Positions 18,804 to 31,069 of a stretch of DNA of 36,072 nt are shown here, one piece after another. The notes under the pieces were generated by a model. That model had not been told where the DNA came from. It saw nothing but the letters and a program-made list of their open reading frames with translations, and searched no databases. Position 1 is the stretch's first letter; the number at the start of each line of letters is the position of its first letter. This DNA is from Elusimicrobiaceae bacterium (lineage in GTDB: Bacteria; Elusimicrobiota; Elusimicrobia; Elusimicrobiales; Elusimicrobiaceae). The DNA is taken from assembly GCA_017646765.1 (NCBI GenBank), contig JAGCMD010000055.1:1-36072 (forward strand). The letters are read 5' to 3'. The position numbers and the translations under genes were made by a program.

Positions 18804-18832
18804 AAATAAGAAAGAACCACCTCGTTTTTCCC

Positions 18833-19412
18833 AAATCCCTACGCGACAGGAAGCAGTTGGTATCGCTCCCTATCAGGGGATTTGCCTTCCGGTAAAATTC
18901 CTGACGGAATTTTCCTGCAGGCCGGGCTCGCGGTACTCGCCTTTGCCTATCGGCAAAACTCGTACAACGCTGCGGCTAGGGTTGGCAAGGTGCTCTTTTT
19001 GCCTTTGCGCCGCTGGACTTTTTAGGGTAGCGCGTAGTTTGTTTTGCGCGTGCCTAGTGAACTAGGTGCGCGCAAAAAAAGAAGTGATAGCCAAAAAGGA
19101 CGCGGCCCGCAGGGTTTAGCCGTTTTTGCTATCCGGCGTTGTTAAAAAAGCTTGTCTATGATTACATAGACTTCACTTTTTTGCCTAGCCGTTCTACGCA
19201 AAAACGGCTAAACGCAATAGAGCAAACAGAACACCTTGCCAACCCAAAATCCCGACGCGACAGGAAGCAGTTGGATTTGCCCTGCATAAATTTCCTGACG
19301 GAAATTTTGCCCGGGCCCGCCCTCGCGGTTTTTGCCTTGCGCCCTTCAGGCACAAACAAAAACATCGCTCCGGGCTTCAAATCCCGACGCGACAGGAAGC
19401 AGTTCCTGTCGC
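18833..19412. repeat. Intergenic hairpin-repeat cluster between fmt and tRNA-Ser
   Basis: Three copies of a roughly 26-base unit beginning AAATCCC and containing GCGACAGGAAGCAGTT start at 18833, 19247 and 19379. Copies 1 and 2 share about 100 bases of further patchy similarity. Hairpins: GCGACAGGAA-GCAG-TTCCTGTCGC is perfect in copy 3 (19389-19412); AAAATTCC-TGAC-GGAATTTT lies in copy 1 (18894-18913) and AAATTTCC-TGAC-GGAAATTT in copy 2 (19288-19307), keeping pairing through base changes on both arms. TTTGCC-TATC-GGCAAA lies at 18942-18957. An imperfect stem TTTTGCGCG...CGCGCAAAA spans 19042-19077. No credible protein gene is present. Confidence 0.8.
19115..19212. repeat. 15-bp perfect inverted repeat enclosing a hairpin
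   Basis: TTTAGCCGTTTTTGC (19115-19129) and its exact reverse complement (19198-19212) flank 68 bases. Inside lies GTCTATG-ATTA-CATAGAC (19154-19171). The size and form suggest a small palindromic mobile or structural element. No target-site duplication is evident. Confidence 0.65.
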
Positions 19413-19423
19413 TCCCTCCGTTA

Positions 19424-19459: not shown

Positions 19460-19462
19460 CAA

Positions 19463-19547
19463 CGGAGAGGGAGGGATTTGAACCCTCGAAACCTTGCGGT
19501 TTACAGGTTTTCGAGACCTGCTGTCTCAACCACTCACACACCTCTCC
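19463..19547 (-). tRNA. tRNA-Ser(CGA)
   Basis: This is an 85-base class II tRNA on the minus strand. The acceptor is GGAGAGG with CCTCTCC, the discriminator is G, and the anticodon stem CAGGT/ACCTG has loop CTCGAAA (anticodon CGA). The long variable arm is built around AACCGCAAGGTT, and the T arm GAGGG-TTCAAAT-CCCTC follows. CCA is not encoded. A TATAAT at 19595-19590 (minus) 42 bases upstream may serve as its promoter. Cotranscription with the RDD-pilin gene upstream is also possible. Confidence 0.95.
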
Positions 19548-19612
19548 AATTATACTTGCGCCGAGTGGCTGGCCCAAATACCTATACCTATTATACTAAA
19601 TTTGCAGGCGGC

Positions 19613-20515
19613 CTAGCGCGCCCCTCCGGCCCAACGCTCGCAGATAAGTTGGCTGCGCCCGCTGTTGTTTAACGGCGTACACGTGATATTCTCACCGGTA
19701 GGCTTTTTGTCGTAAGGGAGCAGTAACTGGTATTTATAATTCTCATCCTTCTCGCGCGTGGCTACAATGCCTTCTCTTTCCAATCTAAACGCAAAAAGAG
19801 GTTCCTCTTTCATAAAACATACATTAGGGGCCGGACTTTCACAAGTACCGTCGGCAAGCAACCGATCCCAACGCCCCGTATAACGGCCGGTGTTAGCCCG
19901 ATATTGGTTTTCCATTTGGTGAACAGAAGTTAATACGCTAACAGCCGCTACTATGCGCGCGCGTTCCACGCTTAAACTATATTGGGGAATGGCAACAGCC
20001 AGTAAAATACCACCTATGAAAAAACAAATCAGTATAAAAAATCCTACTACCCCAATCATGATAGCGGTACCCTTTTTGCGCTCGGGTTGCGGGTCTATTA
20101 CCAAGCAGCCGGCAATCATGTCGTGTAGACATTGTCTCTTTTGAGTCCACAAGCAAAACAAGTACCCGATATAGAGTATTATTTGGGCCAAAAACGCCTT
20201 TGCCAAATTACGTACCAAGGAACGTCCAAACGAAACGCGGTTTCCGGCGCTATCCACTACTTTTATCCCAAACAATTTTTTGCCCAACGTACCTTGCCAG
20301 GAAGACGATTCCGCCCACACAAAGTAAACCAGAAAAATTATCGGTCCGTAAAGTATCAAAAGCCAGCCTAAAATAGCTTGGCCCGTTTCCGAAGGATTAC
20401 CCGCTATAGCGGTTATCAAACCTTGCAATACAATCGGGATAAGTAACAAGGCCCCAAATAAAAAGCCATCTATCAGATATGCAGCCAAACGTTTCCAAAA
20501 ACTAGCGTAAGTCAT
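19613..20515 (-). CDS. RDD membrane protein fused to a type IV pilin-like domain
   Basis: The 300-residue protein has two parts. Residues 1-145 are an RDD domain (FWKRLAAYLIDGFLFG start, three or so membrane helices, GTLGKKLFGIKVVD). After a PERKKGT linker, residues 150-300 resemble a type IV pilin/pseudopilin: a long hydrophobic helix ending in LLAVAIPQYSLSVERARI, then QMENQYRANTGRYTGRWDRLL and four Cys that could form two disulfides. The prepilin peptidase site (G-FTLIE type) is missing, so the helix would stay as a membrane anchor. The start has GGAG at 6 bases. An extended -10 (TGTTATACT, hexamer 20561-20556) lies upstream. Function is unknown. Confidence 0.85.
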   Translation of the reverse strand: MTYASFWKRLAAYLIDGFLFGALLLIPIVLQGLITAIAGNPSETGQAILGWLLILYGPIIFLVYFVWAESSSWQGTLGKKLFGIKVVDSAGNRVSFGRSLVRNLAKAFLAQIILYIGYLFCLWTQKRQCLHDMIAGCLVIDPQPERKKGTAIMIGVVGFFILICFFIGGILLAVAIPQYSLSVERARIVAAVSVLTSVHQMENQYRANTGRYTGRWDRLLADGTCESPAPNVCFMKEEPLFAFRLEREGIVATREKDENYKYQLLLPYDKKPTGENITCTPLNNSGRSQLICERWAGGAR

Positions 20516-20555
20516 TTGCTTCTCCTTTTTTGTGATAAATAAAACTGATTAACCC

Positions 20556-20643: not shown

Positions 20644-21474
20644 ATGGCCGAAGGATGCTCACACGATTGCGCCAGCTGCAGTGCCAATTGTGCAAGCCAC
20701 ACCGCAGAAAATACTAAAATTAAACCGCATTTATTAAGCCGCATTAAACACGTTATCGGCGTGGTAAGCGGTAAAGGCGGCGTCGGAAAATCGTTTGTTA
20801 CCGGGCTACTGGCTACCGAGATGACCCGCCGCGGTTTTTCATGCGGTATTTTAGATGCCGATATTACCGGACCGTCTATTCCTAAAATGTTCGGCATTCA
20901 CGAGCGCGCCCAAGGCGACCAAGACGGTATTTATCCGGTAACCACCGCCGGCGGCATACAAATTATGTCGCTTAACCTATTGTTGGAAGACGAAACCGAC
21001 CCGGTCATTTGGCGCGGCGCGCTGATTACCGGAACGGTGCAACAATTTTGGACCGACGTTATTTGGAAAGATATTGATTACCTATTTATAGATATGCCCC
21101 CCGGCACCGGGGATGTTACACTTACGGTGTTTCAATCGCTGCCTATGGATGGTATTATTATGGTAACTACGCCGCAAGATTTGGTACAACTCATTGTGGG
21201 CAAAGCCGTCAAAATGGCACAAAAAATGAACGTGCCTATATTGGGGCTTGTGGAAAATATGAGTTACTTAAAATGCCCCGATTGCGGAAAAGAAATTTCT
21301 CTCTTTGGGCCTTCTAAAGTTCAAAAAACCGCGCAACATTTTAATATCGCTACAGCCGTGCGCTTGCCGCTTAACCCGGCGCTGGCCCAGGCGGCAGATG
21401 AAGGGCAAATGGAAACCGTGCGCGAAGAAGCACTTGCCACTCTGGCAGACCAACTCAGCCAATTAAACAAATAA
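20644..21474 (+). CDS. mrp: Mrp/NBP35-family Fe-S cluster carrier ATPase
   Basis: The 276-residue P-loop protein transfers Fe-S clusters to target proteins. The deviant Walker A is GKGGVGKS (near 42-49), DADITGPS follows, and IDMPPGTGD is the switch motif. A CxxC (CPDC, near 216) binds the cluster at the dimer interface. An N-terminal Cys-rich segment (C-x3-C-x2-C-x3-C within the first 16 residues) resembles the NBP35 ferredoxin-like cluster site. The DUF59 domain of long Mrp proteins is missing. AGGGGAAATAT precedes the ATG. The aminotransferase gene follows after 28 bases. Confidence 0.95.
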   Translation: MAEGCSHDCASCSANCASHTAENTKIKPHLLSRIKHVIGVVSGKGGVGKSFVTGLLATEMTRRGFSCGILDADITGPSIPKMFGIHERAQGDQDGIYPVTTAGGIQIMSLNLLLEDETDPVIWRGALITGTVQQFWTDVIWKDIDYLFIDMPPGTGDVTLTVFQSLPMDGIIMVTTPQDLVQLIVGKAVKMAQKMNVPILGLVENMSYLKCPDCGKEISLFGPSKVQKTAQHFNIATAVRLPLNPALAQAADEGQMETVREEALATLADQLSQLNK

Positions 21475-21502: not shown

Positions 21503-22711
21503 ATGCCTACAACTTTAAGTAAACTTTCAAGTCTTATTGGAGATTCCCCCACTTTAAAAATTAATGCAGCGGCCCGTGCCTTAAAAGCGGCCGGAGAGCC
21601 GGTCGTTCATTTAGGCGGGGGCGAGCCAACCTATCCGGCCCCGCAATCAGCCGTAGATGCCATTATCCAAAAAGCACAAAGCCGCAAAATTAAATATTCC
21701 CCGTCTTCCGGCACGCCGGCTATGAAACAAGCCGTCATTGCCTATACGGAAAAATACTACGGCCGCCGTTTTGAGCCGGCTAATGTACTTATCAGCGCGG
21801 GAGCCAAACAAGCCCTTTTTAACTTTTTACTCGCCGCGGTAACCGAAGGGGACGAAGTTATTTTTGCCGCCCCCTATTGGGTCAGCTATCCGGAAATGAT
21901 AAAAATAGCCGGCGGCACACCTGTTTGCGTACGTCCGACGGAAGGGTTGCAAGTGAAAGCCCAACAAATTTTGGACGCGGTTACCCCGAAAACCAAAGCT
22001 ATTTTACTTAACAGCCCCTGCAACCCTTCGGGGCAAATCTATAGCGAAGAATTTATTAAAACTATCGTAGAGTTCGCCGAAAAAAACGATATCTTTTTGG
22101 TAATGGACGATATTTACCACCAACTTGTTTTTGACGGCAACAAAACCCCCAACCCGTGTCAATACGCCAAAGAAGGTAACAATATGGTTATTATCAACGG
22201 CGTATCTAAGTTGTACGGATTGACGGGGTTACGTATCGGGTGGGCCGTAGCAAAACGCAACGATTTAATTGCCGCTATGGGCCGTATGCAAGCGCAAAGC
22301 ACGTCATGCAATAGCGATTTGTCCGAAGTGGCCGCCTGCGCGGCGCTCATGGGCGACCAAAGTTGCATTGCCGATTTGTGCCGCGTTTTGCAAGACAACC
22401 GCAACACCCTTTTAGAAGAAGTGGAAAAAATCCCGCACGTGAAAGTACAAAAACCGCAGGGAACTTTCTACTGTTTTGTAGATTTTAGCTACTATAACGC
22501 TTCCTCGGCCGAATTGGCCCAATATCTATTGGAAAAAGCGTTGGTAGCAGTTGTGCCCGGAATAGCGTTCGGCGCGGACGGGTATTTGCGCATCAGCTTC
22601 TGTGCGGATAAGGCTTCTATTGTAGAAGGCGTACGCCGCATCCGCTGGGCGCTTGATAAAACCGCTCCGAGAGAACTGAAAATCGGGGACAAAATTATAA
22701 CGAGGGACTAA
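21503..22711 (+). CDS. Class I/II PLP-dependent aminotransferase, probably aspartate aminotransferase
   Basis: The 402-residue fold-type I aminotransferase has the PLP-binding Lys236 in GVSKLYGLTGLRIGWA, the NSPCNPSGQIYS motif that holds the cofactor Asn, the YHQLVFDG Asp/Tyr region, and a C-terminal substrate Arg in YLRISFC. It resembles AspB/AspC-type enzymes that link aspartate and oxaloacetate, which fits the adjacent PEP carboxykinase acting on oxaloacetate. Substrate choice cannot be settled from sequence alone. AGGAAAGGA precedes the ATG, and the stop lies one base before pckA. Confidence 0.93.
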   Translation: MPTTLSKLSSLIGDSPTLKINAAARALKAAGEPVVHLGGGEPTYPAPQSAVDAIIQKAQSRKIKYSPSSGTPAMKQAVIAYTEKYYGRRFEPANVLISAGAKQALFNFLLAAVTEGDEVIFAAPYWVSYPEMIKIAGGTPVCVRPTEGLQVKAQQILDAVTPKTKAILLNSPCNPSGQIYSEEFIKTIVEFAEKNDIFLVMDDIYHQLVFDGNKTPNPCQYAKEGNNMVIINGVSKLYGLTGLRIGWAVAKRNDLIAAMGRMQAQSTSCNSDLSEVAACAALMGDQSCIADLCRVLQDNRNTLLEEVEKIPHVKVQKPQGTFYCFVDFSYYNASSAELAQYLLEKALVAVVPGIAFGADGYLRISFCADKASIVEGVRRIRWALDKTAPRELKIGDKIITRD

Positions 22712-22712
22712 T

Positions 22713-24338
22713 ATGAAGACAATCAATGCAACACCGGACTATTTCAAACCGGATTACGGGTTGGATAATGCCGGCATTAAAACGACTAAAAACGTCTATT
22801 GGAACTATTCCACTCCGGCTTTATACGAAGAAGCCATTAAACGTGAAGAAGGCAACGTCGTTTATGGCGGGCCTTTGTGCGTAAGCACCGGCAAACACAC
22901 CGGGCGCAGCCCCAATGACCGCTATTTTGTGGAAACCCCTGAAATAGAAGGCAAACTCTTCTATTGCAAAAGCAATAAAGGGATTAAGGCCGAATACTTT
23001 GATAAAATTTTTGCCAAAGTCCAACAATACGTGGCTGACAAGGACTTATTTGTGCGCGACGCGTACGTGGGGTCCAGCGAGGCTTCCCGCTTAAAAGTAC
23101 GCGCGATTACCGAGTGCGCCTGGTCCAACGTATTTGTTAAAAATATGTTTATTGAACCTGCCAAAGAAGAACTTAAATCGTTCGTGCCTGAGTTTACGCT
23201 TATCTGCTTGCCCAAAATGCATGTAGATCCGGCTACCGACGGCACCGTATCCGAAACCGCCATTTTGATTAACTTTGCTAAAAAGCTAGTCCTCGTAATC
23301 GGCAGTGAATACGGCGGCGAAAACAAAAAAGCCCTGTTTACGATTATGAACTTCCTCTTACCGCAAAAAGGTATTATGACCATGCACTGCTCGGCCAACG
23401 TAGGCAGCAAAAACGACAGCGCGATTTTCTTTGGGTTGTCCGGCACCGGAAAAACCACTCTATCGGCCGACATTACCCGCGGACTTATCGGCGACGACGA
23501 ACATGGTTGGGATAGCGACGGCATCTTCAACTTTGAAGGCGGTTGCTATGCAAAAGTCATCCGCTTAAGCCAAGAAGCCGAGCCGCAAATCTATTCCACC
23601 ACCCACCGCTTTGGTACGGTGTTGGAAAACGTCGTGTTTGATCCGCAAACTGGCAAACTCAATTTAGATGATGATACGTTAACCGAAAACACCCGCGCTT
23701 GCTATCCGCTTAATTTCATTGATAATGCCGTGGAAAGCAAACGCGCTACGCACCCCAAAAACATCATTTTCTTGACGTGTGATGCTTTTGGTGTAATGCC
23801 GCCCATCTCTAAACTCAGCCCCGACCAAGCCCTCTACCACTTCATTAGCGGTTATACCGCCAAAGTGGCCGGTACGGAAAAAGGCGTAAAGGAACCCACC
23901 AGCACGTTCTCTACGTGCTTTGGCGGGCCGTTTATGCCGCTGCACCCCTCGGTCTATGCAGAACTCTTGAAAAAGAAAATCAAAGAGCATAACGTAGATT
24001 GCTGGCTCGTTAATACGGGCTGGATCGGCGGGCCGTATGGTATCGGCAAGCGCATCAGCATCAAATATACGCGTGCGCTACTCAATGCCGCGTTGGACGG
24101 AAAACTGGCCAAAGTAAATTTCAGTACGGACCCGGTTTTCGGTTTCCAAATTCCGACCTCTTGCGAAGGCGTACCTTCGGAAATTTTGAACCCCATTAAC
24201 TTGTGGGCCGATAAACAAGATTATATGGCTAAATACGAAGCATTGGCCCAATCGTTTATTGAGAACTTCAAAAAATACGAAGCCGGCTGCACGAAAGAAG
24301 TACTCGCCGCCGCGCCGAAAGTGAAGGTCGCTGCGTAA
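22713..24338 (+). CDS. pckA: Phosphoenolpyruvate carboxykinase (ATP)
   Basis: The 541-residue cytosolic enzyme converts oxaloacetate and ATP to PEP, CO2 and ADP, or the reverse in fermenting anaerobes. Family motifs are STGKHTGRSPNDRY (near 58), HCSANVGSKND, the P-loop GLSGTGKTTLSAD (near 244) and metal-binding GDDEHGW. The C-terminal adenine-binding region holds NTGWIGGPYGIGKR. Length equals E. coli PckA. The ribosome-binding site AGGGA lies inside the end of the aminotransferase gene, so the two are coupled and probably handle the C4 acid/PEP node together. Confidence 0.98.
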   Translation: MKTINATPDYFKPDYGLDNAGIKTTKNVYWNYSTPALYEEAIKREEGNVVYGGPLCVSTGKHTGRSPNDRYFVETPEIEGKLFYCKSNKGIKAEYFDKIFAKVQQYVADKDLFVRDAYVGSSEASRLKVRAITECAWSNVFVKNMFIEPAKEELKSFVPEFTLICLPKMHVDPATDGTVSETAILINFAKKLVLVIGSEYGGENKKALFTIMNFLLPQKGIMTMHCSANVGSKNDSAIFFGLSGTGKTTLSADITRGLIGDDEHGWDSDGIFNFEGGCYAKVIRLSQEAEPQIYSTTHRFGTVLENVVFDPQTGKLNLDDDTLTENTRACYPLNFIDNAVESKRATHPKNIIFLTCDAFGVMPPISKLSPDQALYHFISGYTAKVAGTEKGVKEPTSTFSTCFGGPFMPLHPSVYAELLKKKIKEHNVDCWLVNTGWIGGPYGIGKRISIKYTRALLNAALDGKLAKVNFSTDPVFGFQIPTSCEGVPSEILNPINLWADKQDYMAKYEALAQSFIENFKKYEAGCTKEVLAAAPKVKVAA

Positions 24339-24747: not shown

Positions 24748-27700
24748 TTATTTTACTTGCGTCCATCCCTCATCGGGGTTTTGCGCCGCCTTGCGTGCTG
24801 CCACGCGCGCTTGGTGGCGGCCCCATTTTTCCACATACGTTTGTACAAGCAAGTAGAATAGCGGAATCAATACCAAGCCGATCAACGTGCCGATAAGCAT
24901 GCCGTAGAACACCGGCACCCCTAACGCGCGGCGGCTGGCCGCACCGGCGCCGGTAGCAATCACCATCGGTACCATCCCCAAAATAAACGTAAACGCCGTC
25001 ATGAGCACCGGGCGGAACCGCTGGGTTAAACCGTCCATAGCAGACAGGAAAATAGAAGTACCGTTTTTATGCTCGTCTTTGGCAAATTCCACAATCAAAA
25101 TAGCGTTCTTAGCCGCCAACCCGACCAGTAACACAAGCCCCAACTGGGCGTAAATACTCATAGACAGCCTCGTTATCCACAACCCAAACAGCCCGCCGCC
25201 TACGGCCGCCACGACGGACATAAGCACCGGTATTGGGATGGTCCAACTTTCATACTGGGCTACTAAGAACAAATAGGCAAACGTAACAGCCAGTAAAATC
25301 AACACATTGATTTGACCTTTGTTTTGTTTTTCCTGATAGCTCATCCCCGTCCACTCGTACGAGTAACCGGGTGGCAGATTTTTCATAATTTCTTCGGTAC
25401 GTTCCATAGCCTCGCCGGTGCTGGTAGCTACGGACGGCACCATAATCGTGGCCGCCGGATATTGGTTATAGCGCGAGATTTGCCGCGGAGACAATATGTA
25501 TTTCATATCCACCAACGCCATCAACGGCACCAATTCACCGGTAGAGCTGGTAACATACATTTTGTTGATGTTTTCCGGCGTCATGCGGTATTTACCTTCC
25601 GATTGTAAAATGACTTTGTTAATTTGCGTACCGAAGTTCACATCTCCCACATAGGCCGAACCCAAGTAGTTTTCCAAAATAGAAAACACATTGGAAACCG
25701 GCACTTTCATACTTTCGGCTTTAGCGCGGTTAACATCCAAAAATATGTTAGGCGTATCGGCCTTGAAAGTAGAGTAAGCAATTTGCATAGACGGATCACT
25801 CATCATTTTAAAACCCATTAAATTAGCGGTATTAGCTAATTTTTGGTAATCAAAATCGTTGAGCGACTGCAACCGCAAATCAAGCCCTCCCGACGTACCT
25901 AACCCGGGGATAGACGGCATTTCCACCGCGCGGATAGTGGCATCCGGAATAGAAGCAAATTGCATATTGAATTTTTGGGCAATGCTAGATTGCAGCAAAT
26001 CTTTAGATTTGCGTTTGCTCCACGGGTCTAACGCCACGAACGCGATAGCCGTATTTTCCCCGCTGCCGCCAAGCATGCTAAACCCAATTACGTTCGTAAC
26101 GTGTTTAACACCGGGCGTTTTTTTAATACCGTCAATTACTTGGTCCATCACGTCTTGGGTACGGGCAAAGGTGGCCCCTTCGGGCAGTTGCACGTCCACA
26201 AGCACAATGCCCTGGTCTTCCAACGGAATAAACGACGTACTCATAAAGTTAAGTAGGGCAAAATCTAATACTACAAATCCCACAAACAACAAGATAATAA
26301 TTACTTTGCGGGCCAGGCGTCGTACTAATTTGCGATACCCGCGTGCACCGCGCAATACGGCTACGTTAAACCAACGCAAAATGAAAATTTTTGTTTCCGG
26401 AATCGGTTTAAGCATAGTGGCACAAATGGCCGGAGAAAGCGACAAGGCATTTAAGGTAGAGAAACACACCGCCACGGAAATTGTTACCGCGAACTGTGTG
26501 TAAATTTTACCGGTAATGCCGCCCATAAATGTAATCGGCACGAAAATAGCCAGTAATACAAGCGTGGTGGCGATAAGCGCGCTGGAAAGTTCTTCCATGG
26601 CTTGGTTGGCTGCTTCAAAGGCGGTTTTTTGTTCACGGTTCATGAGTGTGATGACGCGTTCTACCACGCAAATAGCATCATCCACCACCAGCCCGATAGC
26701 CAGCACCAGGGCAAAGAGGGTGAACATATTGATGGAGTATCCCAACGCCATCATCACGGCAAAGGTACCCAGTAGCGAAACCGGGATGGTGGCTGCCGGC
26801 ACCAGCGTAGCGCGCCAATCTTGCAAGAAGACATAACACACGGCTACCACAAGGAAAAATGTAATAAGTAGCGTAAGCAACACTTCTTCAATAGAGGCGT
26901 TAATAAAGTCGGTCGTATCAATAGAAAATTCATATTGTAACCCTTGGGGGAAAAACCCTTCCAAGCGTTTCAACTCCGCACGCACTTCTTTAACCGTTTC
27001 CAACGCGTTGGCGCCGGAAGAAAGGTTAATCATAATCGGCACCGTGGGATGCCCGTCAAACGAGGCCGCATGGCTGTATGATTCCTGCCCGGCTTCCACA
27101 CGGGCAATTTCGTTTAAGCGTACGAGTCCGCCTTGTTCGTCGGTGCGCACGATAATATTTCCAAATTCTTCGGCAGAATTAAGGCGGCCTTCCGTTTGCA
27201 AGGCATAAATAGTAAGTACCGAACCGTCATTGGGGCGAGCCCCGATTTTACCTAACGAGGGTTGATAGTTTTGGCTGGCAATAGCCGATTTTACATGGGC
27301 CGCAGAAATGTTCATAGCGGCCATTTTATCCGAATCTAACCACACGCGCATACTTTTGGCAGCCCCGAATACACGCGCCTCTCCTACGCCGGTAATGCGG
27401 CTTAAGTTTTTCTGTACGTTATTATTTAAATAGTCGCTGATGTCTAGCGTAGTCATTTTTCCGGTGGGGTCGCTAAATGAAACAATACCTAAAATGTTAG
27501 ACGAACGGCGAAACACCGTAAGCCCCTGCCGGGTCACTTCCGCCGGCAACAGCGGCGTGGCCTGTGAAACGCGGTTTTGCACTTTTACCTGCGCGATATC
27601 CGGGTCCACCCCCGTTTTAAAGGTCACCGTCAGCATATACGAACCGTCAGCAGAGTCGGAAGACATATAAAGCATATCTTCCACCCCGTTGACACTGGAT

Positions 27701-27900
27701 TCCAACGGAATACCGACCGTCTTGGCAATTACTTCGGCACTGGCTCCGGGATATGCCGCGCGAACGACTACTTCCGGCGGCGTGATTTCAGGATACAAAG
27801 CTATCGGCAACGTGCGAAGCGCAATAATACCGGCTAAACATAATATGAGCGAGATAACAAGCGCAAAACGCGGGCGGTTAATAAAGAATTTAGCGAACAT
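24748..27900 (-). CDS. RND multidrug efflux pump, inner-membrane transporter (HAE1 family)
   Basis: The 1050-residue AcrB/MexB-type trimeric proton antiporter starts MFAKFFINRPRFALVISL. The proton-relay residues are Asp407-Asp408 (GLVVDDAICVVE) in TM4 and Lys931 (GLAAKNAILIVEF) in TM10, at AcrB-like positions. Two large periplasmic loops and 12 helices are expected. It forms a tripartite pump with the adaptor and outer-membrane channel encoded immediately upstream (gaps of 3 and 2 bases). The ribosome-binding site GGAGGG is within the end of the adaptor gene. Expression is probably controlled by the TetR-family repressor at the operon head. Confidence 0.97.
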   Translation of the reverse strand: MFAKFFINRPRFALVISLILCLAGIIALRTLPIALYPEITPPEVVVRAAYPGASAEVIAKTVGIPLESSVNGVEDMLYMSSDSADGSYMLTVTFKTGVDPDIAQVKVQNRVSQATPLLPAEVTRQGLTVFRRSSNILGIVSFSDPTGKMTTLDISDYLNNNVQKNLSRITGVGEARVFGAAKSMRVWLDSDKMAAMNISAAHVKSAIASQNYQPSLGKIGARPNDGSVLTIYALQTEGRLNSAEEFGNIIVRTDEQGGLVRLNEIARVEAGQESYSHAASFDGHPTVPIMINLSSGANALETVKEVRAELKRLEGFFPQGLQYEFSIDTTDFINASIEEVLLTLLITFFLVVAVCYVFLQDWRATLVPAATIPVSLLGTFAVMMALGYSINMFTLFALVLAIGLVVDDAICVVERVITLMNREQKTAFEAANQAMEELSSALIATTLVLLAIFVPITFMGGITGKIYTQFAVTISVAVCFSTLNALSLSPAICATMLKPIPETKIFILRWFNVAVLRGARGYRKLVRRLARKVIIILLFVGFVVLDFALLNFMSTSFIPLEDQGIVLVDVQLPEGATFARTQDVMDQVIDGIKKTPGVKHVTNVIGFSMLGGSGENTAIAFVALDPWSKRKSKDLLQSSIAQKFNMQFASIPDATIRAVEMPSIPGLGTSGGLDLRLQSLNDFDYQKLANTANLMGFKMMSDPSMQIAYSTFKADTPNIFLDVNRAKAESMKVPVSNVFSILENYLGSAYVGDVNFGTQINKVILQSEGKYRMTPENINKMYVTSSTGELVPLMALVDMKYILSPRQISRYNQYPAATIMVPSVATSTGEAMERTEEIMKNLPPGYSYEWTGMSYQEKQNKGQINVLILLAVTFAYLFLVAQYESWTIPIPVLMSVVAAVGGGLFGLWITRLSMSIYAQLGLVLLVGLAAKNAILIVEFAKDEHKNGTSIFLSAMDGLTQRFRPVLMTAFTFILGMVPMVIATGAGAASRRALGVPVFYGMLIGTLIGLVLIPLFYLLVQTYVEKWGRHQARVAARKAAQNPDEGWTQVK

Positions 27901-27903
27901 GAC

Positions 27904-29088
27904 TTATTTGCCCTCCGCGGGGGTTTCGGCCGATTTACCAACCGGCATTTGCGGGGTGCTTACTTCGCTAACGTTGACTTTTTGGCCGTTTTGTAATTTC
28001 TGCTGGCCGACAGGAACCACCCGGTCGCCGTCTTCCAACCCGGAAATAACTACGTATTGGCCGTCCACCACATCTCCTAAGGTGATATACTTTTGCACCA
28101 CTACATTATCATTATTAACGGTCATTACGTATTGACCGCTGGCATCTTGAGAAACGGCCGTTTGCGGAATTAAAATTACCGGGCGGAATTTATCGGTACT
28201 GACAGTGACGTTTACGTAATTTCCGGGGATAAGTTTATTATCCCGGTTTTGGGCTTGCGCGTATACGGCAATCGTAGCGGTTTGGGCGTTAATTTCGTTA
28301 TCGGCAAACACGGCAGCTTGCGGAATTTCAATCGTTTGTCCGTTGGGCAGTGCAATTTGGATATCGGGTTGTTGGGTAGTCAGTTGGTCCATGCCGGATA
28401 AACGTTCCTTATCGGTAATAGAGAAAACCACCCGAATCGGATCCATTTGAATAACACGCGCCAATTTATTTACCCCGGCGGTAGCCAAATTTCCCTTAGT
28501 CATAAGCGCTTTGCCAATATATCCGCTGATGGGAGAGCGGACTTCGGTATATTGCAAATCTAATTTAGCTAAATCTAAACTGGCTTGAGCCGCCTTAACG
28601 TTGGCCTTGGCGGTAGCTAAATTACTCTCGGCTACTTCTAAATCAGCTTTGGACAACATTTTATCTTTATAAAGAGTAATTTCGCGGTTATAATTACTTT
28701 GGATTTGCTTTAAGCTGGCTTTGGCTTTTTCCAACGCAGCTTCTGCCGCCGAAGCAGCAGCCTGATAGCGGGCTTGGTCAATGACAAACAGCACGTCGCC
28801 TTCTTGCACAAAAGAACCGTCTTGGAAGCGCACCTCATCAATGTAACCGGAAACCTGTGGAATAACATCCGCCGCGTTAATAGCCTCCACTTTAGCAATA
28901 AAGGTTTTTCCTAAAGCAACGGGGCGCTTAGCAACCGTTTTGACCAGCACGCTGGATTGCCCGGCCGCGCCGTACATACCGGCCGCCGGACCGGAGAAAA
29001 ATTTCCCCTTTATATAAAACCCAAGGCCTATGCCAATAAGAAACATAAGCGTATATTTAATGTAACGTTTAACAGTTCTTTTATTCAT
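27904..29088 (-). CDS. RND efflux periplasmic adaptor (membrane fusion protein)
   Basis: The 394-residue AcrA/MexA-like adaptor bridges the RND transporter and outer-membrane channel. It is anchored by an N-terminal helix (about 11-28) rather than a lipid. Then follow a lipoyl-like half (VIPQVSGYIDEVRFQDG, near 75-91), an alpha-hairpin coiled coil (about 110-180) with the lipoyl return TEVRSPISGYIGKALM (near 185-200), a beta-barrel domain and a membrane-proximal domain ending in GLEDGDRVVPVGQQKL. The Ala/Pro-rich C-terminus is non-conserved. Confidence 0.96.
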   Translation of the reverse strand: MNKRTVKRYIKYTLMFLIGIGLGFYIKGKFFSGPAAGMYGAAGQSSVLVKTVAKRPVALGKTFIAKVEAINAADVIPQVSGYIDEVRFQDGSFVQEGDVLFVIDQARYQAAASAAEAALEKAKASLKQIQSNYNREITLYKDKMLSKADLEVAESNLATAKANVKAAQASLDLAKLDLQYTEVRSPISGYIGKALMTKGNLATAGVNKLARVIQMDPIRVVFSITDKERLSGMDQLTTQQPDIQIALPNGQTIEIPQAAVFADNEINAQTATIAVYAQAQNRDNKLIPGNYVNVTVSTDKFRPVILIPQTAVSQDASGQYVMTVNNDNVVVQKYITLGDVVDGQYVVISGLEDGDRVVPVGQQKLQNGQKVNVSEVSTPQMPVGKSAETPAEGK

Positions 29089-29090
29089 AA

Positions 29091-30425
29091 TTAGTATTCT
29101 CCAATGCTTCTATACAAATTAGCTTTGCTCAGTAATAAGCTGTAAAAAGCGGTAATTTTATTTTGGCGTGCGTCGGCCAGCTGGGCTACGGCGGAAAGTA
29201 AATTTAAAATATCCGTTTTGCCCAGCTCATAATACCGGAAGGCAACGCGGTGGTTTTCCTCGGCACTTTCCAAAACAGTTTGGCTGATTTCATAAGAGCG
29301 TTCGGCTGTTTTGTAGTTTTGATAGGAACTCCACACTTCGTTTTCTATCTGACGTTTGATATTGTCCGTTTGGTTTTGAGTCTGTTTATATAAGTAGGAG
29401 GCTTGCTCGGCCGCGTACACATTGGCAAACCCGGAGAAAATCGGCCATTGAAGCACCAAGCCGGCAGCATTGTTGACGGTATAAGGCGCGTGGTGTCTCC
29501 AGTTGTCGCCGATTGCTGCCGAAGCGGCTACGCTAAAAGAAGGAAGCAGCCGCGCACGAGCCGCCGTTAAGTTAGCTTTAGCGGCTTCTTGCGTATTTTG
29601 CTGGGCCAACAGTTCGGGACGTTTTTCTAACGCTTGCGCCATCAACTCGTCAATGTTATCGTTTTTAATTTGGATAATTGTTTCATCAAAAACAGGCTCT
29701 TTGAGGTGTATATCCGTACCGGGGCGCAAGTTAAGTAGAACCGCCAACGCACCGCTATATTGTTTAACCTGATTTTCGTGCTGGACTACTGTTAAAAGAG
29801 ATTGTTCATAACGCGTTTTAGCTTGCAGCTTATCACTGAGCGATACCATGCCCAGCTTGTAACGCTTTTGCGCTTCTTCGTAGGAACGTTGATACGTCTC
29901 CAAATTAGCTTTGGCACTTACCAATGATTCTTGGGAAGCCAATAAATTTAAGTAAGCTGTTTGCACGGATAAGAATAAATCGTGCATAGTAGCCGCGTAT
30001 TGCGATTCGGCGGCCTTTGTATACAAACGGATGCTGCGTACAGTAGCTTCACGTCCGCCAAAGTTAAAAAGCAACCACGAAGCCTCGGCCTTGCCGGTAA
30101 CCGGTTCCTTTTGCACGTAGCTGCCATGTTCAATTTTGTCACCTGTAATTTGCCCAACACCCGTTAATGTAACCACCGGCAAATACTCCGAGCGCGACGC
30201 ACCGAGTGCGGCCTCTTGCGCTTTAACGCTCATGTATTGCGAAGCCAGGGCCGGGTTTGTGCAAAGACTGATTTGGATAAGGTCTTCCAAATTTAAACTT
30301 TGCGTTGTCACCTCTTTATCCACGCACCCTTCCGGCGGACGTACGCGGTAGGCTCCCAACGGGTCTAAGGCCGCGGCGGGCCATGCTAAACTGCATAGTG
30401 CAGCTAAGAACAGATATTTTTTCAT
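29091..30425 (-). CDS. TolC-type outer-membrane efflux channel
   Basis: The 444-residue protein has a signal peptide (MKKYLFLAALCSLAWPAAA) and two OEP domains with long alpha-helical hairpins (SLNLEDLIQISLCTNPALASQ start, YKLGMVSLSDKLQAKTRYE, and YYELGKTDILNLLSAV near the end). It is the exit duct of the tripartite pump. A start at 30476 is possible but would put 17 residues before the signal peptide. ATG 30425 fits better and overlaps the tetR stop (ATGA), coupling the two. Confidence 0.94.
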   Translation of the reverse strand: MKKYLFLAALCSLAWPAAALDPLGAYRVRPPEGCVDKEVTTQSLNLEDLIQISLCTNPALASQYMSVKAQEAALGASRSEYLPVVTLTGVGQITGDKIEHGSYVQKEPVTGKAEASWLLFNFGGREATVRSIRLYTKAAESQYAATMHDLFLSVQTAYLNLLASQESLVSAKANLETYQRSYEEAQKRYKLGMVSLSDKLQAKTRYEQSLLTVVQHENQVKQYSGALAVLLNLRPGTDIHLKEPVFDETIIQIKNDNIDELMAQALEKRPELLAQQNTQEAAKANLTAARARLLPSFSVAASAAIGDNWRHHAPYTVNNAAGLVLQWPIFSGFANVYAAEQASYLYKQTQNQTDNIKRQIENEVWSSYQNYKTAERSYEISQTVLESAEENHRVAFRYYELGKTDILNLLSAVAQLADARQNKITAFYSLLLSKANLYRSIGEY

Positions 30426-31069
30426 TTTATATTTCCTTGTTGATACGAATTTAAAATCGCTAATGTATGACGCCAAACCACGTTTTTAATCTGTTGGCGC
30501 AGGGCCGTGGAAATGTGGGAAACGCCCAATTTTTTTAAAATTACTAACCGGTGACACTCCGACAACATCACTTGTCCGAAAATACTGTGGGAGACCACCA
30601 ACAACTCCGGTGATTTGGCAGGCAGCCCGGTTAATTTAACAAGTAATAAATGAGGGAGTTCCTGATACGGCGCTAAATACGATAAAAGCATTTGGCGCAT
30701 AGGGGCCGACTCCAGCTCTACCCGCGTAAAAATACGCTCAAGCGGCAAATCGCGGTTGCTTAGTCCGCACTCCAGCAGATAATCTAACATATGCCGAAGT
30801 AGTTTCAAGGCCTGTTCGCGCGAATAGCCGCGCACGTCTTTCTCTGTGGGCAAAGGCGTGCTCTCGCCCCACGATTTCCGGCGGTGCTCTTCCGCTAAAA
30901 AGTGTAACGTTTCTTTATATAATCCGCGTTTATCGCCAAAATAATAATGAATTGCCGACACGTTCACCCGTGCCGCACTGACAATATCCCGCACGGAAGT
31001 GCCCGAAAAGCCCTTCCGAGCAAACAGGCGCATAGCAGCGCGGAGAATTTTTTGGCGCGTATCCTTCAT
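30422..31069 (-). CDS. TetR/AcrR-family transcriptional repressor of the efflux operon
   Basis: The 215-residue protein has an N-terminal helix-turn-helix (about 5-50; TRQKILRAAMRLFARKGFSG split over the family start, then VRDIVSAARVNVSAIHYYFGDKRGLYKE). A ligand-binding helical C-terminal domain of the CerR/DUF1956-like type follows. It is first in the operon tetR-OMF-MFP-RND, so autoregulation is expected. A perfect 10-bp inverted repeat overlaps the -35 of its promoter. The TATAAT -10 ends 6 bases before ATG and no Shine-Dalgarno is seen, so the transcript may be leaderless. Confidence 0.94.
   Translation of the reverse strand: MKDTRQKILRAAMRLFARKGFSGTSVRDIVSAARVNVSAIHYYFGDKRGLYKETLHFLAEEHRRKSWGESTPLPTEKDVRGYSREQALKLLRHMLDYLLECGLSNRDLPLERIFTRVELESAPMRQMLLSYLAPYQELPHLLLVKLTGLPAKSPELLVVSHSIFGQVMLSECHRLVILKKLGVSHISTALRQQIKNVVWRHTLAILNSYQQGNIK

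What the first reader, a model, noticed from the sequence alone, without database searches (positions are those of the whole stretch)
19613..20515. RDD channel-like domain fused to a type IV pilin-like domain without a prepilin cleavage site
The second half keeps the pilin helix signature (LAVAIPQYSLSVERAR) and the NGRY-type segment after it, plus four Cys, but has no GFTLIE processing site and is tethered to a membrane RDD domain. This could be a fixed pilin-like sensor or a platform interacting with the pilus or secretion machinery. I know of no described protein with this arrangement.
Basis: partly seen in the sequence, partly recalled or inferred. Interest (0 to 1): 0.65.

Follow-up and report, generated by a model that had tools for sequence, protein, structure and literature searches.

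The report
Membrane-tethered pilin head without cleavage site
This gene of a gut bacterium (Elusimicrobium) joins a multi-pass membrane module of the RDD family to the outer part of a pilus subunit whose normal cutting site has been lost, so the pilin head is probably fixed in the membrane; the same fusion recurs at one conserved chromosome position in related species with different pilin heads.

Summary
The finding is real. Window 20515..19613 (minus strand) is one intact 300-aa ORF: RDD domain (Pfam 1.6e-30), then one long hydrophobic helix running into a type IV pilin-like head (residues ~162-300). A frameshift artefact is excluded: eleven genomes carry the same architecture directly divergent from the same Mrp gene. 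A profile of fused heads finds PDB pilins (best 1.8e-6), starting at mature residue 6, just after Glu5. None of 20 uncleaved relatives matches the prepilin cleavage pattern (34 of 57 prepilins of this genome do). The host has about 60 canonical prepilins in 1.35 Mb. At the Mrp slot the RDD part is constant while the head varies: some heads group with cleavable prepilins, and one origin for all fused heads is rejected (AU p 0.006); other genomes have RDD alone, a cleavable prepilin, or nothing there. A second RDD-pilin group lies elsewhere in most sister genomes, and a zinc-ribbon variant exists. Best reading: an RDD inner-membrane module carrying a non-cleavable, exchangeable periplasmic pilin head. 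Whether it senses, docks to pili or gates transport is untested. New variant of a known kind.

The parts
19613..20515 (-). Whole gene: RDD domain + uncleaved type IV pilin-like head, 300 aa
   Evidence: SD-like AAGGAG at 20522-20527
20108..20509 (-). RDD domain, residues 3-136, with conserved R9, D16 and H131-D132
   Evidence: PF06271 1.6e-30; invariant columns
19889..20080 (-). Single predicted helix, residues 146-209: fourth hydrophobic segment that runs into pilin alpha-1; pilin homology starts about residue 162, P177 equals pilin Pro22
   Evidence: AF2, hydropathy, PDB pilin profile match from mature residue 6
19616..19888 (-). Predicted periplasmic pilin-like head, residues 210-300, beta strands and a C-terminal helix, four Cys (225, 233, 279, 292); C279 and C292 invariant among ten fusions
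19462..19548 (-). tRNA-Ser(CGA), conserved downstream flank of the slot
   Evidence: ARAGORN
20644..21474 (+). Mrp-type ATPase gene, conserved divergent flank of the slot
   Evidence: name given from the sequence, not from a family search
21503..24338 (+). Aminotransferase and PEP carboxykinase (ATP) genes, conserved beyond the Mrp gene in L055, L056 and L057
   Evidence: names given from the sequence

Best explanation
An inner-membrane protein of two modules. The RDD module (three predicted transmembrane segments; N- and C-terminal sides predicted cytoplasmic from the charge pattern) is the constant part. A fourth hydrophobic helix continues as the pilin alpha-1 helix, crosses outward and presents a pilin-type head with Cys pairs in the periplasm. 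The fusion junction lies inside the hydrophobic helix, between pilin residues about 5 and 14, so the leader, Gly-1, Phe+1 and Glu5 are gone: the head should not be cleaved by the prepilin peptidase nor enter a filament by the normal route. The head is exchangeable: at one conserved slot (Mrp | RDD-X | tRNA-Ser) it is of different pilin subtypes or absent. Shown: architecture, pilin homology, loss of the motif, synteny, variation of the head. Inferred: topology, non-cleavage, non-polymerisation. Proposed function (weakest step): the head is a fixed periplasmic binding domain that contacts pilins of the large prepilin repertoire or an external ligand and modulates the RDD module. My confidence is about 0.9 for the anatomy, 0.75 for non-cleavage and 0.3 for the function.
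For: RDD 1.6e-30. Profile of fused heads against PDB: all 15 hits with E below 0.3 are pilins (one of them the pseudopilin GspG at 0.29), best 1.8e-6, beginning at mature residue 6. Heads of L055, L056, L042 and L043 match canonical prepilins L009/L010 of the window's own genome over most of their length, 4e-47 to 1e-24. PROSITE-type prepilin pattern: 0 of 20 uncleaved relatives, 34 of 57 own prepilins; +5 is never Glu in the fusions. AF2: one helix 146-209 then beta strands, pLDDT 83.8; head with its helix alone 86.8. Slot synteny: RDD-pilin divergent to Mrp in G000, G019, G099, G227, G196, G214, G202, G203, G186, G075, G219; RDD alone in G040, and near it in G135 and G141; canonical prepilin in G210 and G022; Mrp directly next to the tRNA in G025 and G212. 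One clade of all fused heads rejected, AU p 0.0057; RDD tree and head tree disagree. Prepilin peptidase and four T2SSE-type ATPases in the genome.
Against: Foldseek puts pilins at the top for the isolated head but without significance (best E 0.48, TM about 0.4), and first for the full model is a probably unrelated helical bundle. G157-F158 in P0001 looks like a G|F pair, two residues too close to P177 and without Glu at +5; cleavage there is not formally excluded. No genetic link to pil/gsp genes near P0001. The group-A core alone is not rejected as one clade (AU p 0.097), and the head alignment has only 130 columns with long branches, so the number of exchanges is uncertain. No functional data.
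Confidence: 0.6

Rival explanations
1. The protein is still processed: the prepilin peptidase cuts within the fourth helix (for example G157|F158), so the RDD part acts as an unusually long polytopic leader and a mature pilin-like subunit of about 143 aa is released into the membrane pool.
For: A G-F-F triplet is present in P0001, L054, L036 and L053; a prepilin peptidase is encoded.
Against: The triplet is absent in L055, L056, L057, L041, L042, L068 and L069; it lies two residues too close to Pro22, without Glu5, about ten residues into the membrane segment; known leaders are 6-26 aa (PMC4471445).
Confidence: 0.1
2. The head is an evolutionary remnant without a role of its own: prepilin genes are numerous and recombine, one was joined to an RDD gene, and only the RDD module works.
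For: RDD without head exists at or near the same slot (G040, G135, G141); heads diverge strongly (23-32% identity); L040 stops right at the position of Pro22.
Against: The ORFs stay open over the head in all these species; P177, E184, L219, F241, Y262, C279 and C292 are invariant in ten fusions; a second fusion group (B) keeps its head in most sister genomes.
Confidence: 0.2
3. The head serves as a docking or capping element of the type IV pilus or type II secretion machine at the inner membrane, rather than as a sensor for the RDD module.
For: Pilin homology and the C-terminal half of alpha-1 retained; group-B fusions often have a canonical prepilin gene within about 2 kb.
Against: No pil/gsp gene near P0001; group-B loci are orthologous, so the neighbourhood counts once; Glu5, used in assembly, is absent.
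Confidence: 0.25
4. The pilin likeness is only chance similarity of a hydrophobic helix.
For: P0001 alone gives sub-threshold family scores; Foldseek is not significant.
Against: Nearly full-length matches of sister heads to canonical prepilins at 4e-47 and pilin-only profile hits that extend 60 residues.
Confidence: 0.03

Closest known systems
RDD family (PF06271), e.g. the Na+(Li+,K+)/H+ antiporter RDD of Halobacillus andaensis (PMC5996927)
   Same: RDD domain with the family's conserved Arg and two Asp, three predicted transmembrane segments
   Different: Carries a fourth hydrophobic helix and a pilin-type head; the position four residues after the HD aspartate (D158 of the antiporter, needed there) is Gly136 here; transport not tested
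Type IV pilins / type II pseudopilins (class III signal peptide proteins)
   Same: C-terminal half of alpha-1 with Pro22, following amphipathic helix, head with Cys pair as in most prepilins of the same genome
   Different: No leader, Gly-1, Phe+1 or Glu5; N-terminus is a polytopic membrane domain
Canonical prepilins L009 and L010 of the same genome
   Same: Head of the same subtype as in the syntenic orthologues L055 and L056 (99/95 support)
   Different: Cleavable FTLIE leader, no RDD; P0001's own head is a more distant subtype
Zinc-ribbon plus uncleaved pilin protein of a related genus (L180, L085)
   Same: Non-leader module in front of a pilin helix without Glu5
   Different: A Zn_Ribbon_1 (PF13240 3.8e-06) instead of RDD
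RDD plus pseudopilin-like protein in a genome of the sample centred on L061 (Acidobacteriota), locus L201
   Same: RDD followed by a hydrophobic helix with a pseudopilin-like tail, by eye
   Different: 438 aa, long linkers, no significant Pfam pilin hit; judged by eye only

Membership tests
RDD family (PF06271) | Profile match above the curated cut-off | tested here: met
   106.7 bits against 24.1, residues 3-136
RDD family (PF06271) | Arg at the start of TM1, Asp in TM1, Asp of the C-terminal HD | tested here: met
   R9, D16, D132 invariant in ten fusions
RDD family (PF06271) | Cation/proton antiport as in the characterised member | not testable with these tools
   D158 equivalent is Gly136 by position (inference)
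Type IV pilin | Class III signal: short hydrophilic leader, Gly-1, hydrophobic tract, Glu5 | tested here: not met
   0 of 20 uncleaved relatives, against 34 of 57 own prepilins for the strict pattern; no Glu at +5
Type IV pilin | Homology of alpha-1 and head to pilins | tested here: met
   PDB pilins 1.8e-6; prepilins of the genome for sister heads, up to 4e-47
Type IV pilin | Pilin alpha-beta fold | tested here: inconclusive
   AF2 helix plus strands; Foldseek pilins first but not significant
Type IV pilin | Processing by the prepilin peptidase and assembly in a filament | not testable with these tools
   Needs experiment

The most novel reading that the evidence does not exclude
Elusimicrobiaceae have a class of membrane receptors or transport regulators built by joining the heads of their very large prepilin repertoire to a fixed RDD membrane module, with heads exchanged at a conserved chromosomal slot, so that pilin folds serve as uncleaved, non-polymerising periplasmic domains.
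Probability: 0.3. Interest if true: 0.7.

Novelty: new variant of a known kind. Interest (0 to 1): 0.47.

Why it matters
Pilin folds are known as parts of filaments or short pseudopili that are cut and extruded. Here the fold is built permanently into a membrane protein, in a lineage with about 60 prepilins per 1.35 Mb, and it varies at an otherwise constant locus. If it binds pilins or ligands, it would show how a filament subunit becomes a receptor domain, and gives a first handle on the function of the RDD domain and of the many prepilins of Elusimicrobium.

Tried and rejected
Frameshift or assembly fusion: rejected by one open frame and syntenic orthologues. Hidden prepilin site: G157-F158 and K-G148 inspected, not conserved or not fitting. 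Chance helix: rejected. Head copied from the prepilin genes next to the slot: rejected, those in L208, L210 and L205 are of other subtypes. Fold search for both models: not significant. Plasmid records: RDD matches end at about residue 150 in the rows listed, none covers 80% of the query. 396 genomes of the phylum of L061: one hit runs past the RDD part, L201, with a pseudopilin-like tail by eye only. Literature on RDD with pilins: nothing found in the held library; the genome paper of E. minutum is not held. RDD relatives without pilin (ankyrin, short Cys-rich tails) were set aside. Residues R124/R129 of the antiporter could not be mapped exactly without its sequence.

Full report
What is there. 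The ORF is intact on the minus strand, 20515 to 19613, 300 aa, with AAGGAG six bases before the ATG. Residues 3-136 are an RDD domain (PF06271, 1.6e-30). Hydropathy gives three segments in the RDD part and a fourth, the strongest, at about 146-184. AlphaFold2 with eight sequences (pLDDT 83.8) makes one helix of residues 146-209 followed by strands and a C-terminal helix; the head with its helix alone gives the same (86.8). Basic residues lie on the N-terminal side of the fourth segment (ERKK), so the head is predicted periplasmic, like a real pilin; this is inference from the positive-inside rule.

Is the head a pilin? P0001 alone gives only sub-threshold scores. An alignment of six fused heads finds PDB chains of which every one with E below 0.3 is a pilin or pseudopilin, best 1.8e-6, and the match begins at mature residue 6, directly after Glu5. 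Heads of sister proteins match canonical prepilins of this very genome over nearly their whole length (L056 to L010, 4e-47). Foldseek ranks pilins first for the isolated head but not significantly. I take the homology as shown and the fold as likely.

No processing site. Canonical prepilins of this genome start FTLIELLVVVLIIGILAAIALP. The fusions keep the second half (GILAAIALPQY) but have neither Gly-1/Phe+1 at the right distance nor Glu5; the strict prepilin pattern hits 0 of 20 uncleaved proteins (19 RDD fusions and the zinc-ribbon one) and 34 of 57 own prepilins. The first half of the fourth helix (EKxGC...) also occurs in RDD proteins that have no pilin head (L039, L040), so the junction lies inside the helix and the fusion itself removed the signal (inference). 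A G-F-F triplet in four members is a possible remnant; it is two residues too close to Pro22 and not conserved.

The host. The window's genome is an Elusimicrobium-like assembly; its named relatives are uncultured Elusimicrobium MAGs of the RUG series (that these are rumen genomes is from my own knowledge). It holds 63 N_methyl matches in 1.35 Mb, a prepilin peptidase and four T2SSE-type ATPases. None of the prepilins is in this window.

Relatives and locus. The same architecture occurs in three genera of the family. Group A sits at one slot: divergent from an Mrp-type ATPase, with tRNA-Ser(CGA) on the other side in most cases and aminotransferase and PEP carboxykinase beyond. The slot holds RDD-pilin in eleven genomes (Mrp adjacency computed from the coordinates where the locus itself was not read), RDD alone in G040 (and in G135 and G141 with another gene between), a canonical prepilin in G210 and G022, and nothing in G025 and G212. 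In the tree of heads, those of L055/L056 (same as G099/G019) and of G186/G075/G219 group with the cleavable prepilins L009/L010 (99/95), and one clade of all fused heads is rejected (AU p 0.0057); the group-A core alone is not (0.097). The RDD tree joins L037 and L038 with L035, L036, L053 and L068 instead. Head exchange with the prepilin pool is the simplest reading; long branches and 130 columns make the number of events uncertain. Prepilins lying beside the slot are of other subtypes, so they are not the direct donors.

A second group, B, of about 280 aa lies elsewhere in most sister genomes and often has a canonical prepilin gene within about 2 kb. A zinc-ribbon variant exists in another genus (L180), and one RDD protein with a pseudopilin-like tail turned up among 396 genomes of the phylum of L061.

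Mechanism. The RDD module is the constant element and the head the variable one; therefore I propose a fixed periplasmic binding head that modulates the RDD module, which in one characterised member carries out Na+(Li+,K+)/H+ antiport (PMC5996927). The partner (pilin or other ligand) is not known; docking to the pilus machine and a neutral remnant are the main rivals.

Novelty. RDD and pilin are known families; the joined, uncleaved form with varying heads was not found in the papers held. It is a new variant, not a new category.

Noticed in passing
whole genome G000 (63 places): 63 prepilin N-terminal motifs in a 1.35-Mb genome; several lie near contig ends, probably because their repeated 5' ends break the assembly.
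   Followed up: partly
window 18832-19417: Non-coding stretch between an fmt-like gene and tRNA-Ser with a 40-nt repeat in three copies and several inverted repeats; its 15-nt core occurs nowhere else in the genome.
   Followed up: partly
L173 3950-5497 (G000:C44): RDD domain fused to a large ankyrin-repeat-like domain in the same genome.
   Followed up: no
L171 3935-4801 (G000:C75): Another RDD protein of the same genome with a tail that has a faint pilin-like segment (KAKYGYYTNDLLRL) but no clear helix match.
   Followed up: no
L151-L163: Orthologous second group of RDD-pilin fusions in most sister genomes, often with a canonical prepilin gene within about 2 kb.
   Followed up: partly
L180 1905-2441: Zinc-ribbon module fused to an uncleaved pilin helix and head.
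   Followed up: partly
L205, L207, L208, L210: The Mrp/tRNA-Ser(CGA) slot is variable: nothing, or cleavable prepilins of unrelated subtypes, in sister genomes.
   Followed up: partly
window 24748-31069: RND efflux pump operon: pump, periplasmic adaptor, TolC-like outer membrane protein and TetR-like regulator (named from sequence).
   Followed up: no
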